Source: Gloeocapsa sp. DLM2.Bin57 (GTDB taxonomy: Bacteria > Cyanobacteriota > Cyanobacteriia > Cyanobacteriales > Gloeocapsaceae). Taken from it: 36,928 nucleotides of DNA. The first letter of the stretch is position 1. Every line of letters starts with the position of its first letter. The position numbers and the translations under genes are program-made. The stretch is taken from positions 1-36,928 of the forward strand of contig RECR01000068.1 of NCBI GenBank assembly GCA_007693955.1. The letters run 5' to 3'. Under the pieces are notes generated by a model, which made no database searches, was not told the origin of the DNA, and saw only the letters and a program-made list of their open reading frames with translations. Of the stretch, positions 1-21,279 are shown one piece after another.

Positions 1-65
1 AAATAAGGACGCGATTCATCTCACGCTTATTTGAGAAAATAAAGCTTGAGGCTTCTCGCGGTTAA
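1..65 (+). mobile_element. Right end of an IS200/IS605-type element (partial copy)
   Basis: These 65 bases are the exact reverse complement of 36720-36784, where they directly follow a recognisable Y1 transposase (tnpA) reading frame. Here only the last lysine codon and the TAA stop (4-6) of tnpA remain; the rest of the element lies left of the window. An imperfect subterminal hairpin, CTCACGCTTATTT pairing with AAATAAAGCTTGAG (20-50), fits the right-end hairpins used by single-strand IS200/IS605 transposases. Identity between the two copies stops at GGTTAA (60-65), which I take as the element boundary. Confidence 0.8.
20..50 (+). repeat. Subterminal imperfect hairpin of the IS right end
   Basis: CTCA pairs with TGAG and GCTTATTT pairs with AAATAAAGC with one extra A; the loop is GAGA. 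The same hairpin occurs in reverse orientation near 36735-36765. Y1 transposases of the IS200/IS605 family recognise such end hairpins, so this is probably the transposase-binding structure. Confidence 0.6.
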
Positions 66-917
66 GCTAAAATTGACCAACAGGCTAAAAGCATCAAATA
101 TAATGGTACATCAGTATCAGAATTAGCCCGTTTATTATCAGCTCATGCTACCACAGACTTAGAAAAAGCGAGAATAATCTATACTTGGCTTGCAGTTAAC
201 ATCGCTTATGACGTTCAAGGTTATTATACTGGAGAATATGGGGATTTAACCCCCGAAGGAGTTTTAAAAAGGAGACAAGCGGTTTGTTCAGGTTATGCTA
301 ATCTCTACCAAGCTTTAAGTCAAGAAATGGGTTTAGAAAGTTTTATTATTTCTGGATATGCTAAAGGATTAAGTTATGAGTCAACTGCAAATCTTCGAGA
401 AACTAATCACGCTTGGAATGGAGTTAAAATTAACGGTAACTGGTATTTAGTTGATGCTACTTGGGCTGCAGGTACAGTTGATAGTCATCAGTTTACACCT
501 AATTTTAATCAATTTTATTTCGCTACTCCCCCAGAGCAGTTGATTTATTCTCATTTACCTGAAGATGAAAATTGGCAGTTATTAACTAATAAATATACTA
601 GAGAACAGTTTCTCGCTTTGCCTAAAGTATCACCACATTTTTTTACCACTCAATTAAATTTACTCTCTCATGGTTATAATAGTCAAGGTAATTTTCAAGT
701 GGTATTAACTGCTCCTGAAAATGTAGAAATTATTGCTGGGTTAACTGTACAAGAAGAGTATTTACCTAGAGAAACTGTCCAAATCCAAAAACATAATAAT
801 CAAATATTTATTATCGCCGATACTTCTAGAAACAAAGCCGATAAATTAAATATTTTTGCTAAATTTAGTCATCAAGAAGGAAGCTACCCTCATGCTGTTT
901 CCTTCAAAGTACCATAA
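66..917 (+). pseudogene. Transglutaminase-like protein, 5' end removed by the IS
   Basis: The frame is open from base 66 to the stop at 917. It encodes a transglutaminase-like (papain-fold) domain with the usual triad: Cys codon 285-287 in AVCSGYA, His 408-410 in NHAWN, and Asp 453-455 in VDATW. A beta-rich C-terminal part follows. The frame begins exactly at the IS boundary, with TAA at 63-65. I see no in-frame ATG, GTG or TTG between 66 and the Cys codon. The first ATG (327) lies after the catalytic Cys, so a product started there would lack the nucleophile. The N-terminal part and any signal peptide were cut off by the insertion. The family includes cyanobacterial secreted or periplasmic proteins; the substrate is unknown. 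Part of the 3' end (769-815) is repeated at 1850-1896. Confidence 0.75.
769..815 (+). repeat. Direct repeat, left copy (end of transglutaminase-like gene)
   Basis: This 47-base segment inside the transglutaminase-like frame aligns without gaps to 1850-1896 with four mismatches by eye. With the paired repeat 936-976 / 1914-1954 it brackets the DUF4351 gene, showing that the locus was duplicated. Confidence 0.8.
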
Positions 918-935
918 GCTTAGTTATGATTGTAC

Positions 936-980
936 ATGGATTTAAGTACTTACGAAAGTGACTTTTACCCTTGGACTTGA
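936..980 (+). pseudogene. DUF29 N-terminal relic
   Basis: ATG at 936 opens a 14-codon frame, MDLSTYESDFYPWT, closed by TGA at 978-980. It matches the start of the downstream DUF29 gene (MDLSIYERDFYAWT at 1914); 37 of 41 bases agree. Homology stops abruptly after TTGGAC near 976, where the sequence becomes the 3' end of the minus-strand DUF4351 gene. It is a decapitated copy of the DUF29 gene left by a duplication or insertion. Confidence 0.75.
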
Positions 981-1840
981 TTGTCTAACCAATCAGATAC
1001 ATCACCCCAACTAGAAAAATCAAAGATACTTTCTCCTAACCCTTCTCTTTGAGAGACTCCTAGTTGACGTATTCGCGATTCTAAAGAGGGGTCAATTTCA
1101 CCAAATCGCTTGGAGAGTAAACGTATTAATAAATTAGCTTCTCCTTCTTCTCTCCCTCTTTCTTCTCCCAATTGTAAACCTTCCTTCAAAATTTCTTGAT
1201 ACCAAGGAGATTCTCTAAGTATAACCATATCCCACCTCATTATTTCTTGAACTAACGGCATTTCTAAGACAAAAGACGCAAAAAACGATAATAAAGGTTC
1301 TAAATCTGTTAACTCTTCCTCTTCTCTTAACTTCCTTACTGCTTCTCTGACTACTACTTCCTCCCCTCCTCCCTTTAAAATAGGTACAAAGGGTAATAAA
1401 CTTGAGATGTTGTCTCTAAATACTAATTCTACTGGTACTTCCCATAAGTTGACCACTCGATAACTTTGATAACTTCTAATCCCCATAAATTCTTCTTCGT
1501 AGAAATTGGGGATGTTGGGATTCTTGACATGTGGTAAAATGTTAATCAGTACTGGATACACAGGTAAATTATATCTCTCTTGAGCTAAAGCTGCATACAC
1601 TCTCATTCTCAAGGGTCCATTGTCTTGATAACGGAGTTGCAATTCGTTTAGCATCAAGAATTCACCTTCTTTTTTCCCCACTATTTTCATCAGCACATCA
1701 TTTTCCCGACTTAACCACTGAAATTCTCCCGAGAGAAACTCACAAAAAGTTAAATCTTGTCTCTGTGTAATCCATCTAATCCAATTATTGGGTGCTAGAC
1801 TAATTAAACGTTTACTCCCTATATCTGCTTTTTTAATCAT
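965..1840 (-). CDS. DUF4351 domain protein, Rpn/PD-(D/E)XK nuclease-like
   Basis: A 291-residue protein of a type widely expanded in cyanobacteria and usually annotated as DUF4351 or Rpn-family (recombination-promoting nuclease/putative transposase). The LNELQL segment near residue 66 looks like the E-x-Q part of a PD-(D/E)XK core. It is followed by RMRVYAALAQ and by a hydrophobic strand, YPVLINIL. The C-terminal part (about 230-290), LLIRLLSKRFGEI then a conserved FSSWGDVSDWL, is the DUF4351 region. A Glu/Gly-rich linker lies at about 222-234. The start is ATG with no strong ribosome binding site. The gene is an island: both flanks are duplicated pieces of the neighbouring transglutaminase and DUF29 genes, so it probably arrived by a rearrangement. 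The nuclease role is inferred from family, and the active site has not been checked. Confidence 0.7.
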   Translation of the reverse strand: MIKKADIGSKRLISLAPNNWIRWITQRQDLTFCEFLSGEFQWLSRENDVLMKIVGKKEGEFLMLNELQLRYQDNGPLRMRVYAALAQERYNLPVYPVLINILPHVKNPNIPNFYEEEFMGIRSYQSYRVVNLWEVPVELVFRDNISSLLPFVPILKGGGEEVVVREAVRKLREEEELTDLEPLLSFFASFVLEMPLVQEIMRWDMVILRESPWYQEILKEGLQLGEERGREEGEANLLIRLLSKRFGEIDPSLESRIRQLGVSQREGLGESIFDFSSWGDVSDWLDNQVQG

Positions 1841-1849
1841 GGTTGGGTT

Positions 1850-1896
1850 GAGAAACTGTCCAAATCCAAAAATGTAACAATCAAATATTTACTATC
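1850..1896 (+). repeat. Direct repeat, right copy (stranded transglutaminase 3' fragment)
   Basis: Non-coding copy of 769-815, starting ten bases beyond the DUF4351 start codon. It runs on towards a second match (1914-1954 to 936-976). About 100 bases present between the two repeats on the left are missing here. Confidence 0.8.
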
Positions 1897-1913
1897 TTAA
1901 GGTATAAGTACAT

Positions 1914-2338
1914 ATGGATTTAAGTATTTACGAGAGAGACTTTTACGCTTGGACAAACAAGGGGATTTACTACGCAACCAACAGCTAACAGAAATTGATT
2001 GGGAGAATATAGCAGCTGAAATTGAGAGTATGGGAAAGTCAGAAAAACGACAGCTAGAAAGTCGATTAGAAGTATTAATTGTGCATTTACTCCAATGGCA
2101 ATTTCAACCTAATTTACGATCTCGCAGTTGGGAATTAACCATTAAAGAACAAAGGTTGCGCATAGAAAGATTCTTAGAAGAGAATCCTAGTTTACAAAGA
2201 TATCTAGATAATATTTGTGCCAAAATTTACCCAGTTGCTTTAATTAGTGCAGAAAAAGAAACAGGTTTATCTATTTTTCCTGCTGATTGTCCTTATAATA
2301 TCTTGGATCTGCTTAACGGTGAATTCTTACCCGAATAA
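1914..2338 (+). pseudogene. DUF29 family protein with an N-terminal frameshift
   Basis: The DUF29 family (small cyanobacterial proteins of unknown function) typically starts with a YERDFYAW motif, then an I-D-W-E-N-I-A-E-E-I block. Here ATG at 1914 encodes MDLSIYERDFYAWT in one frame. The rest (DKQGDLLRNQQL, then IDWENIAAEIESMGKSEKRQLESRL) is in another frame that runs to 2338. Joining them needs one extra base near 1955-1957 (AAA, perhaps originally AAAA). The remaining open frame has only a TTG (1949) as possible start. Either the gene is freshly broken, or a base was lost in sequencing or assembly. A relic of the same gene start lies at 936-980. Confidence 0.75.
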
Positions 2339-4767: not shown

Positions 4768-5937
4768 ATGAAACTTAAACAACTTATTATATATACTAGC
4801 TTATTAGCCCTGGGAACTAGTGCAGGATTTTTTACTCGTTCCTATCTTCATAACCAAGAAGAAACTGTGCTCAATCCTCAATTAATTCCTGCAGCTAGTC
4901 GTAGCTATTCTCCACCGGTCGATATTCCCAATCCAGAAGATTTAAACTTTGTCGCTAAAGCTGTACAACAAGTAGGACCTGCGGTAGTGAGAATAGACGC
5001 TTCGCGGATTGTCTCACCCAATCATAACCCCTTTGATCCTTTACGTAGATTTTTCGGTGAATCAGAAATACCTCCAGAAATGGAAAGACTAGAACGAGGT
5101 ACAGGAACAGGTTTTATCTTAAGCGAAGACGGTATAATTATTACTAATGCTCACGTTGTCGCAGGAGCAAATAAAGTTATCGTTACCCTCACCAATGGAG
5201 AAACTGTCGAAGGAAAAATACTCGGAACAGACGAATTAACCGATATAGCAGTTGTCAAAATCCCTGGTAATAATTTGCCTATCGTAACTTTAGGTCAATC
5301 CGTCAATCTTATTCCAGGAGAATGGGCGATCGCCATTGGTAACCCTTTAGGATTAGATAATACAGTTACTGTAGGGATTATTAGTGCTTTAGGAAGATCT
5401 AGCAGTGAAGTAGGTATCCCAGATAAAAGAGTCAAATTTATTCAAACCGACGCAGCGATTAACCCAGGTAATTCAGGTGGACCATTGCTCAACGCTAAAG
5501 GCGAAGTAATTGGGATGAATACAGCTATACGGATTGATGGTCAAGGTTTAGGTTTTGCCATTCCCATAGAAACTATCCAAAGAGTAGCACAAGATTTGTA
5601 CGTCCATGGAGAAGCCCAACACCCCTATCTCGGGGTTCAGATGACTAATATCACTGCTAGTAACCTCAAAAATATTGAGTCAGAATTCGGCTTAAAACTA
5701 AAAGACGCAACAGGAGTATTAATAGTACAAGTAGTGCCTAATTCTCCCGCTGCTCAAGCAGGTATTCAACCAGGAGATATAATTAAAAAAATAGGCGATC
5801 GCCCTATACTAGAATCAAAAGACGTACAAGAAACAGTCGAAGCTAGTCAAATAGGCGCACCTCTAGAAATAGAAATCATCCGTAAACAAGAACTTCAGGT
5901 TCTCCAAGTAATCCCTGGTGTATTTCCCAAACCTTAA
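4768..5937 (+). CDS. hhoA: HhoA/HtrA (Deg)-family serine protease
   Basis: Trypsin-like periplasmic or thylakoid-lumen protease of the Deg family, which degrades or refolds damaged proteins. In the 389-residue sequence, residues 4-24 form a signal or membrane anchor. The catalytic triad is His129 (TNAHVV), Asp159 (LTDIAV) and Ser236 (NPGNSGGPL). One C-terminal PDZ domain covers about residues 285-385, with GVLIVQVVPNSPAAQAGIQPGD. The single PDZ domain and short N-terminal anchor fit the cyanobacterial HhoA/HhoB/HtrA group. Which of the three paralogues this is cannot be decided here, so the symbol is tentative. It is divergent from the DUF1269-rpe pair; mnmG follows 16 bases downstream. Confidence 0.9.
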   Translation: MKLKQLIIYTSLLALGTSAGFFTRSYLHNQEETVLNPQLIPAASRSYSPPVDIPNPEDLNFVAKAVQQVGPAVVRIDASRIVSPNHNPFDPLRRFFGESEIPPEMERLERGTGTGFILSEDGIIITNAHVVAGANKVIVTLTNGETVEGKILGTDELTDIAVVKIPGNNLPIVTLGQSVNLIPGEWAIAIGNPLGLDNTVTVGIISALGRSSSEVGIPDKRVKFIQTDAAINPGNSGGPLLNAKGEVIGMNTAIRIDGQGLGFAIPIETIQRVAQDLYVHGEAQHPYLGVQMTNITASNLKNIESEFGLKLKDATGVLIVQVVPNSPAAQAGIQPGDIIKKIGDRPILESKDVQETVEASQIGAPLEIEIIRKQELQVLQVIPGVFPKP

Positions 5938-5953
5938 CTAATTCCTATTGATT

Positions 5954-7837
5954 ATGACCGTAGAATTTCAAGACTCCTTTGAGATAATTGTAGTTGGTGG
6001 TGGACATTCAGGATGTGAAGCAGCTTTAGCTAGCGCACGTCTTGGCTGTCGCACCTTAATGTTAACCCTTAACCTCGATAAAATTGCTTGGCAACCCTGT
6101 AACCCAGCGGTAGGAGGTCCGGCTAAGTCCCAACTAACCCACGAAGTAGATGCTCTTGGGGGTGAAATTGGTAAAATGGCTGACCGTACTTATTTACAGA
6201 AACGATTACTCAATTCTTCCCGAGGTCCTGCGGTGTGGGCTTTAAGAGCACAAACAGATAAGCGGGAATACGCCAAAGTCATGCAAGAAATCGTCGAAAA
6301 TCAAGAGAATCTGACGATTAGGGAGGGAATGGTTACGGATTTATTGCTAGGTAACAACGATGAGGTTATCGGAGTAAAAACTTATTTTGGTACTTGTTTC
6401 CAAACTCAAGCAGTAATATTGACTACAGGTACTTTTTTAGGTGGTACAATCTGGATTGGCTCTCAATCTATGTCCGCAGGAAGAGCAGGAGAATTCGCCG
6501 CGGTAGGATTAACCGAAACCCTCAACCGTCTAGGATTTGAAACAGGAAGGTTAAAAACAGGAACTCCCGCTAGAGTAGATAAACGCTCTGTTGACTATAG
6601 TAAAATGGAGGTTCAACCCCCTGATGATCAGGTACGCTGGTTTAGTTTTGACCCCGAGGTTTGGGTAGAAAGAGAGCAGATGAACTGTTACCTCACTCGT
6701 ACCACTAGTCAAACACACCAGTTAATTCGAGATAATTTACATCTTTCTCCTATCTATGGGGGATGGATTGACTCCGTAGGTCCTCGCTATTGTCCTAGTA
6801 TTGAAGATAAAATCGTTCGTTTTGCTAGTAAAGAGTCTCATCAGATTTTTATTGAACCCGAAGGGCGATATATACCAGAATTGTATATACAAGGGTTTTC
6901 TACTGGATTACCAGAAAAGCTCCAACTAGCTATGTTGCAAACTCTACCAGGTTTAGAAAACTGTGCCATGTTGCGTCCTGCTTATGCGGTAGAATACGAC
7001 TATCTCCCCGCTACTCAATGTTATCCTACCCTGATGACTAAAAAAATAGCAGGTTTGTTCTGTGCAGGTCAAGTAAATGGCACAACAGGTTATGAAGAAG
7101 CAGCAGCTCAAGGAATCGTCGCAGGAATCAACGCTACACGCTTCGTCAAAGGTCAAGACATGATCGTCTTCTCTCGTGAAGAGAGTTATCTAGGGACTTT
7201 GATTGATGACTTGTGTACAAAAGACTTGCGCGAACCCTATCGAATGCTTACCTCTCGTTCAGAATATCGTCTCGTCTTACGCTCAGATAACGCTGATCAA
7301 CGCTTAACCCCCCTAGGGAGAAAGATTGGCTTGATTGACGATCGCCGTTGGGAACTGTTTACTCGGAAACAAGAAAATATCCTCGCTGAAAAAGAAAGAT
7401 TATACGCAACTAGGATTAAAGCACAAGAGCCAGTAGGAGAAGCGATCGCCGCTGATACTCAACAAAAAATCAAAGGTTCAATCACATTAGCTGATTTATT
7501 GCGTCGTCCTGGTTTTCATTACGTTAATCTAGAGCAATACGGTTTAGGAAATGCTAACCTTACTCTTGAAGAAAAACATGGAGCAGAAGTTGACATCAAA
7601 TACTCTGGTTATATCAAACGTCAGGAACAACAGATAGAGCAAATCAGTCGTCAAGCTCATCGTAATCTCCCTAACAACCTAGATTATCTGAGTATCGAGA
7701 CTCTCTCCATGGAAGCTAGAGAAAAACTTTCTCGTGTACAACCTTTAACCATTGGTCAAGCTTCTCGCATTGGTGGAGTTAATCCCGCTGATATTAATGC
7801 TCTGTTGATCCATCTTGAGTTAAAATCTTCTCTATAA
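5954..7837 (+). CDS. mnmG: tRNA uridine-5-carboxymethylaminomethyl(34) synthesis enzyme MnmG
   Basis: FAD- and tetrahydrofolate-dependent enzyme that, with MnmE, builds the cmnm5 group on the wobble uridine of several tRNAs. The FAD-binding motif [14 protein letters not shown] is at residues 13-26. [20 protein letters not shown] and the [18 protein letters not shown] block are all typical. The start is taken as ATG at 5954 (627 residues); an in-frame TTG two codons earlier is less likely. Length is normal. It lies 16 bases after the hhoA-like gene on the same strand and may be read from the same transcript. Confidence 0.97.
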
Positions 7838-20850: not shown

Positions 20851-21279
20851 TTGATTAGAAATAATACTCAAACAAATTTCATCTTCTCCAATACCAAAAT
20901 CCAGCAGTTCAGCCTCTTGGGGTTTACCACCATATTAGTCGCTTGTTTTTCTACTTTGAATATAATTATAGAATCTCAAGCAATGGCTCAAACCCTTACA
21001 GGAAATGACGCTAAACAACAATTACTTTCCACTAATCAATGTCCTGGTTGCGATCTCCAAGGTGCTGATTTAGAAGAAGCTAATCTCAGTAGTGCTAACT
21101 TGAGTGGTGCTAATCTCAGTGGTGCTGATTTAGAAGAAGCTAATCTCAGTGGTGCAAATTTGCAAAACGCTGATTTTACAGGAGCTGATTTAGAAGACGC
21201 CAACCTTACTAATGCTGATGTAACTGGTGCAAACTTCACAGGAGCAAAGTTACAAGGAGTTATCGGGTTAAATCGGTAA
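20851..21279 (+). CDS. Secreted pentapeptide-repeat protein
   Basis: A 142-residue protein. Residues about 20-43 are a hydrophobic signal region ending AMAQ, a likely signal peptidase site; the mature part is short. From residue 67 onward it consists of about 13 pentapeptide repeats ([18 protein letters not shown] and similar), which fold as a right-handed square helix. The start is taken as TTG at 20851, with AAGGA nine bases upstream. The next ATG (20983) is after the signal sequence, so a cytoplasmic form is possible. The role is unknown; it is divergent from furA. Confidence 0.75.

What the first reader, a model, noticed from the sequence alone, without database searches (positions are those of the whole stretch)
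769..1954. DUF4351 (Rpn-like) gene bracketed by duplicated pieces of its neighbours
Repeat pairs 769-815/1850-1896 (43 of 47 identical) and 936-976/1914-1954 (37 of 41) lie in the same order on each side of the DUF4351 gene. The order transglutaminase end then DUF29 start exists twice. An ancestral transglutaminase-DUF29 junction was therefore duplicated, with the DUF4351 gene in between. Since Rpn-type proteins are linked to recombination, this could be a footprint of how such genes spread.
Basis: partly seen in the sequence, partly recalled or inferred. Interest (0 to 1): 0.6.

Follow-up and report, generated by a model that had tools for sequence, protein, structure and literature searches.

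The report
Nuclease gene inserted with target duplication
A small nuclease-type gene slipped between two neighbouring genes of a cyanobacterium and left a doubled stretch of those neighbours on either side; the same scar surrounds related genes elsewhere, which is a clue to how such genes move.

Summary
The insert (977-1849, 873 nt) is almost exactly the gene. No relative with the transglutaminase-DUF29 junction was found, so this site has no empty-site proof. But two other DUF4351 loci in the same genome carry the same scar: C37 (duplicated cofH/mutS2 junction, 332/342 nt) and C47 (494-nt span, partial copy). Same-genus genomes have both sites single and empty. Cleaner cases also exist in three other genomes (G014, G046, G001). 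By one fixed criterion 13 of 86 DUF4351/Rpn places are bracketed against 16 of 901 other genes; with a site-unique filter, 7 of 86 against 8 of 1180. This matches 'insertion with long target duplication', known for restriction-modification genes, whereas a 2023 preprint says rpn genes lack target-site duplications. That Rpn proteins drive it is not shown: a toxin-antitoxin pair and a few ordinary genes show the scar too.

The parts
66..917 (+). transglutaminase-like gene, left neighbour; C-terminus intact, N-terminal part missing
   Evidence: Pfam PF01841 and PF23265; relatives 454-507 aa, here 283 aa after a stop at 63-65
769..815 (+). repeat R1, copy A (inside the transglutaminase gene)
922..976 (+). 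repeat R2, copy A (left-over DUF29 start, runs into a stop after 14 codons)
977..1849 (.). insert, 873 nt, between the two copies
   Evidence: bounded by the repeats
965..1840 (-). DUF4351 (Rpn-like) gene, 291 aa: N-terminal nuclease-like domain, C-terminal DUF4351; last codons come from R2 copy A
   Evidence: PF14261; alignment with 29 relatives; fold
1850..1896 (+). repeat R1, copy B (outside any gene)
1897..1899 (.). place where copy B lacks 103 nt that copy A has between R1 and R2
   Evidence: spacings 1081 and 978
1900..1954 (+). repeat R2, copy B (start of the surviving DUF29 gene)
1914..2338 (+). DUF29 gene, right neighbour; frame broken near 1954 (open frame 1949-2338)
   Evidence: PF01724

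Best explanation
A horizontally acquired DUF4351 (Rpn-like nuclease) gene was inserted at the transglutaminase-DUF29 junction in one event that duplicated about 208 nt of the target: 'insertion with long target duplication'. The left copy kept the end of the transglutaminase gene whole, the right copy kept the start of DUF29; the spare halves then decayed (103 nt lost from copy B). Shown: the ordered duplication, a gene-sized insert, no terminal repeats, the same anatomy at two other loci of this genome whose single-copy empty sites exist in sister genomes, and similar scars in three other genomes. Inferred: the chemistry. Most likely (about 0.45) DNA synthesis at a break switched template onto incoming DNA carrying the gene and then re-entered the chromosome upstream of where it left, so the stretch between was copied twice; next (about 0.3) filling-in of a break whose two strands were cut a few hundred nt apart. 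Such insertions survive because the duplication leaves both neighbours whole.
For: Repeats are site-specific and ordered. C37: cofH/mutS2 junction duplicated, 332 and 342 nt at 83%, insert 1004 nt; sister genome G001 has cofH and mutS2 adjacent, single, no DUF4351, and aligns with the left copy on the cofH side and the right copy on the mutS2 side. C47: repeats 98% and 95% in the same order; sister G002 has the small ORF directly before the helicase, single, no DUF4351. G014: last 95 nt of a HAD gene repeated beyond the DUF4351 gene, only 2 copies in that genome. G046 and G001: site-specific 99-nt and 83-nt pairs. Enrichment: 13 of 86 vs 16 of 901, own genome 3 of 13 vs 1 of 456; site-unique 7 of 86 vs 8 of 1180, p 2e-5. 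RpnA is reported as a non-specific double-strand nuclease whose ends prime synthesis and fit a template-switch model (PMC5350276, passages).
Against: No empty site for the window itself. Most DUF4351 loci show no scar. Of the 13 bracketed, three are one tandem array with REP-like spacers (L283), one has a repeat array (L284), one a dispersed repeat (L298), two are only about 40 nt (L263, L293). Among 54 places of the window's own subfamily only one more non-tandem, gene-unrelated case appeared (L178). The automatic site-unique filter also drops C37 (mutS2 ortholog in another genome) and L300 (third partial copy). For C47 the left flank in G000 is a contig start and cannot be matched to G002. 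Donor sequences are unknown, so microhomology at the joins could not be tested.
Confidence: 0.72

Rival explanations
1. Rpn-driven self-insertion: the nuclease made by the gene cuts the target with widely spaced nicks or provokes repair that copies its own gene in. It would be a mobile unit without terminal repeats.
For: Enrichment at DUF4351 loci; PD-(D/E)XK-like fold with invariant D48, E66, Q68; published RecA-independent recombination by RpnA (PMC5350276, passages).
Against: The same scar at a HigBA-type toxin-antitoxin pair (L291) and at a few other genes (L337, L277); insert ends differ between loci and share no sequence; only a minority of loci scarred; PMC10327210 (section 4) finds no sign of transposition by rpn genes.
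Confidence: 0.18
2. Two steps: the TG-DUF29 junction was first duplicated in tandem by ordinary slippage or recombination, and a DUF4351 gene later landed between the copies.
For: Cannot be excluded at the window, where no empty site was found.
Against: The duplication edges coincide with the gene ends at the window (976 and 1850 around a gene at 965-1840), and comparable brackets recur at C37 and C47; short spaced duplications are rare elsewhere in this genome.
Confidence: 0.1
3. Single-crossover integration of a circle that carried the gene and a homologous copy of the junction.
For: It would give direct repeats around the insert; the C37 insert has a 53-nt terminal overlap, as a circle or tandem array would.
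Against: It needs the donor to carry each of several different chromosomal junctions; no other copy of these junctions was found in the genome.
Confidence: 0.05
4. The repeats are dispersed elements (REP, MITE) that happen to flank the gene.
For: True for some bracketed loci (L283, L284, L298).
Against: At the window, C37, C47 and L257 the repeats are pieces of the flanking genes and have only two copies in their genome.
Confidence: 0.02

Closest known systems
Insertion with long target duplication (Nobusato et al. 2000, Gene 259:99; original not read, known here through PMC1643837, PMC3031569 and PMC4978471, passages)
   Same: A gene unit inserted between direct repeats of the target, long and of variable length, without inverted ends; one copy in genomes without the insert.
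   Different: Described in the passages read for restriction-modification genes, chiefly in Helicobacter pylori; here the cargo is a single DUF4351/Rpn-like gene in cyanobacteria.
Rpn (recombination-promoting nuclease, YhgA-like) genes
   Same: PD-(D/E)XK-like N-terminal domain, DUF4351 as C-terminal part, horizontal spread, tandem arrays.
   Different: The window protein does not match TIGR01784 or PF04754; rpn genes are reported to lack target-site duplications (PMC10327210, section 4).
Classical insertion sequences
   Same: Insert between direct repeats of the target.
   Different: No terminal inverted repeats; duplications of 83-494 nt instead of a few nt to about 14 nt (the usual range is recalled).
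Transposed genes with flanking repeats in Arabidopsis (PMC2869330, passages)
   Same: Genes at new places flanked by repeats that match the empty site of a relative.
   Different: Eukaryotic, no special gene class tied to a nuclease.

Membership tests
Insertion with long target duplication | Direct repeats of target sequence, in order, on both sides of the insert | tested here: met
   window; C47, C37
Insertion with long target duplication | Duplication long and variable in length | tested here: met
   about 208 nt (window), 332/342 (C37), 494 (C47), 95/99 (L257), 99/98 (L292), 83 (L300):
Insertion with long target duplication | Empty site with one copy in a relative | tested here: inconclusive
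   window: no relative has the junction; met for C37 and C47
Rpn family | PD-(D/E)XK nuclease domain | tested here: inconclusive
   model pLDDT 77, pTM 0.60; Foldseek best E 0.04, none below 0.001; VIA-align best rows mostly PD-(D/E)XK nucleases, EndoMS Z 8.0, rmsd 3.8, 107 aligned (the fold class of the rows is recalled); D48, E66, Q68 invariant in 14 sequences
Rpn family | Match to TIGR01784 or PF04754 | tested here: not met
   no match at E 0.1 in Pfam or E 0.01 in NCBIfam for the window protein; relatives on plasmids (52-58%) are annotated Rpn family; hence called Rpn-like, not filed as Rpn
Rpn family | DUF4351 as C-terminal part | tested here: met
   PF14261 E 1.8e-18
Insertion sequence | Terminal inverted repeats and a short target duplication | tested here: not met
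   only two weak inverted pairs, 75-80%, not at the insert ends; no shared ends between inserts

The most novel reading that the evidence does not exclude
DUF4351/Rpn-like nucleases are themselves the agents: each acts at its target with widely spaced cuts and has its own gene copied in, making a minimal one-gene mobile element with a PD-(D/E)XK enzyme, no terminal repeats, and target duplications so long that they were not recognised as such.
Probability: 0.15. Interest if true: 0.85.

Novelty: new variant of a known kind. Interest (0 to 1): 0.6.

Why it matters
How rpn/DUF4351 genes move has been open: they spread horizontally, yet were reported to lack target-site duplications. If long target duplications mark their insertion sites, the question becomes testable by comparing empty and filled sites, and rpn genes join restriction-modification genes (and perhaps toxin-antitoxin pairs) in a shared way of entering genomes that keeps both neighbours alive. 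It also links an observed scar to the published template-switch model for RpnA.

Tried and rejected
An empty site for the window was sought in 60 relatives, in the same-genus genomes and in genome contigs (36 loci); none has DUF29 or DUF4351 near the transglutaminase in the flanks held. Relatives of the next gene, 2344-2931, gave no synteny.

Bracketed loci dropped after inspection: L283 (three places of one array; REP-like spacers), L284 (repeat array), L298 (dispersed); L263 and L293 kept only as weak. Non-DUF4351 brackets dropped as dispersed or internal repeats: L246, L249, L264, L334. TnpA-type genes (L227, L283) and group II intron or IS genes (L227, L336) among the controls are ordinary mobile elements (names by eye from the translations).

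A donor was sought: plasmids hold only relatives below 60%, phages none. PADLOC gave nothing for the window protein. Search of solved structures by sequence gave nothing useful. Some PD-(D/E)XK families did not appear in the fold lists; nothing is concluded from that.

Literature: searches. No paper holding both 'long target duplication' and 'cyanobacteria'; the only paper with 'rpn genes' and 'target-site duplications' is the one that denies them. Most subscription papers are not held; Furuta et al. 2010 was not held. Of PMC2654758 and PMC11708052 only reference-list lines were seen.

Full report
The window is the first 36,928 bases of contig C68 of a 3.45-Mb, 138-contig genome whose family is represented by only three genomes in the collection. 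The named relatives of its genes are mostly cyanobacteria. At its left end lie a transglutaminase-like gene (66-917, +), a DUF4351 gene (965-1840, -), a DUF29 gene (1914 or 1949 to 2338, +) and an uncharacterised gene (2344-2931, +).

The repeats are as described. One search gives 769-815/1850-1896 at 91% and 922-976/1900-1954 at 82%; the core 936-976/1914-1954 is 90%. In the whole own genome these sequences occur only at the two places (E 1.7e-12 and 3e-9; next best 0.23). In the window no other spaced direct repeats of 35 nt or more exist except inside one repeat-rich gene. Copy B lacks 103 nt of copy A between the two blocks. R1 is coding in copy A, where the transglutaminase gene runs on to its stop and aligns to the end with ten relatives; R2 is the DUF29 start in copy B, while in copy A it reads MDLSTYESDFYPWT and stops. 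So each copy keeps one neighbour whole and the spare half decays.

What lies between, 977-1849, is hardly more than the DUF4351 gene: nine bases precede its start codon, and its last codons and stop are taken from R2 copy A. In an alignment with 29 relatives the gene has about their usual length and ends about where relatives with the same C-terminus end. The gene is alone of its subfamily in this genome: of 13 matches the next is 31% identical; 53 of 60 related genomes have some match, the best about 50-63% identical. The same-genus genome G001 has only distant ones. It therefore looks acquired (inference).

None of these loci holds DUF29 or DUF4351 near it in the DNA fetched. The junction was seen only in this genome, so the window's own empty site could not be shown.

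Test of the second idea, other DUF4351 loci: the own genome has 15 PF14261 places. Fourteen regions around them (173 kb with the window) and 20 control regions (396 kb) were scanned for spaced direct repeats. Three DUF4351 loci are bracketed, the window among them. C37 (L209): cofH (-) and mutS2 (+) starts, 332 and 342 nt, 83%, on both sides of a broken DUF4351 gene (5128-6069), insert 5100-6103 (gene names). C47 (L211/L068): 197-318 and 314-379 repeated as 1445-1566 (98%) and 1833-1898 (95%), i.e. the start of a small ORF and an inner part of a helicase, with about 266 nt missing from the left copy, around a DUF4351 gene at 513-1388. In the own-genome controls the only bracketed gene, by the rule below, is a TnpA-type transposase with its own repeats.

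Empty sites exist for both. In G001 (same genus) cofH and mutS2 lie side by side, divergent, 77-78% identical, single, without DUF4351; a three-way alignment shows the left G000 copy continuing into cofH and the right copy into mutS2. In G002 (same genus) the small ORF directly precedes the helicase (69% and 83% identical), without DUF4351. The decayed left copy of mutS2 in G000 was also found independently, with stops.

Wider survey: 86 PF14261 places in eight further genomes, 60 regions fetched, which do not cover all 86. With one rule (repeat of 35 nt or more, E 1e-4, each copy within 600 nt of the gene, DUF4351 tandem repeats excluded) 10 of 73 DUF4351/Rpn places there and 3 of 13 in the own genome are bracketed, against 15 of 445, 0 of 129 and 1 of 327 other genes: 13 of 86 vs 16 of 901, p 1.5e-7 (that total of 86 is by coincidence the same number). 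By hand I keep L257 (G014: last 95 nt of a HAD gene repeated beyond the gene), L292 (G046) and L300 (G001), whose repeats have two copies in their genome (L292 plus a 27-nt fragment, L300 plus a third partial copy); L263 and L293 are weak; L283 (three places), L284 and L298 are dropped. For L300, G046 has YggT and accC 50 nt apart, so the G001 interval is probably an insertion. For L257 the same-genus G041 has the HAD gene without a DUF4351 gene beside it, but with another right neighbour. With an automatic site-unique filter and 400 kb of unselected sequence from five genomes added, the count is 7 of 86 vs 8 of 1180 (one-sided p 2e-5); own genome 2 of 13 vs 1 of 456; other genomes 5 of 73 vs 3 of 300 unselected genes (p 0.009). 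The 7 include L298, which one search had already shown to be dispersed, and exclude C37 and L300 for the technical reasons given above; the two corrections pull in opposite directions. In 54 places of the window's own subfamily five were bracketed: three in one array (L163, the same as L283), one by a 65% repeat that looks like paralogous genes (L160, by eye), and one (L178, G018) by a 181-nt, 99.4% identical pair, with a second gene inside.

The scar is not exclusive to DUF4351. Site-unique pairs also bracket a HigBA-type pair in G046 (142 nt, 97%), a hydrolase next to a kinase start in G018, and a few others (names by eye). This speaks for a general route of entry with DUF4351 genes as frequent passengers, and against assuming that the nuclease does it.

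The protein: AlphaFold model pLDDT 77. Foldseek has no match below E 0.001; VIA-align ranks EndoMS (Z 8.0), PaqCI, McrC, Card1 and BspD6I nucleases high on residues 1-151, at the level where chance arrangements can occur. With invariant D48, E66 and Q68 a PD-(D/E)XK domain is likely but not proven. The sequence models TIGR01784 and PF04754 do not match it, though TIGR01784 passes its cut-off for the C47 protein and is hit below cut-off by L257, L292 and L263 proteins. I therefore say Rpn-like.

Literature: 'insertion with long target duplication' was described from two H. pylori genomes, frequently with restriction-modification genes (PMC1643837, passages); [quoted passage not shown] For rpn genes the preprint PMC10327210 (section 4) states that they are not flanked by target-site duplications and that their ends vary; it also notes DUF4351 as RpnS in some species. 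RpnA is described as a non-specific double-strand nuclease leaving 3' hydroxyls, fitting a template-switch model (PMC5350276, passages). The variable ends agree with what is seen here; [quoted passage not shown]

The agent and the chemistry remain open.

Noticed in passing
window 1914-1960: The DUF29 frame that starts at 1914 and the frame of the rest (1949-2338) do not agree: the gene is broken or uses a later start.
   Followed up: partly
window 1-65 and L068 1-57: Contigs C68 and C47 begin with the same sequence of about 55 nt, perhaps an IS200/IS605-type right end (recalled, not tested); the transglutaminase gene has lost its N-terminal part just there.
   Followed up: no
L209 5108-5160 and 6046-6098: The C37 insert has a 53-nt overlap at its ends: the gene's end is fused to a gene start on both sides, as if taken from a tandem array or a circle.
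   Followed up: partly
L300 5278-5360, 6539-6621, 6861-6908: Three copies (one partial) of the same sequence separate YggT, a DUF4351-type gene, a small HicB-like gene (by eye) and accC, as if two genes entered one after the other.
   Followed up: partly
L291 6308-6449 and 7154-7294: A HigBA-type toxin-antitoxin pair (by eye) next to a DUF4351/Rpn gene is bracketed by its own 142-nt duplication, 97% identical.
   Followed up: partly
L178 429-609 and 2353-2533: A 181-nt, 99.4% identical pair encloses a PEP-CTERM-like gene (by eye) and a DUF4351-subfamily gene: a young case.
   Followed up: partly
L249 5432-9710, L242, L247, L262: Tandem arrays of two to four nearly identical DUF4351/Rpn genes in G041 and G058.
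   Followed up: no
L337 11699-13174: A hydrolase gene sits between two copies of the start of a protein kinase gene (by eye): a possible long target duplication around a non-defence gene.
   Followed up: no
window 21060-21262: Pentapeptide-like repeat gene, the only other local direct repeat in the window.
   Followed up: no
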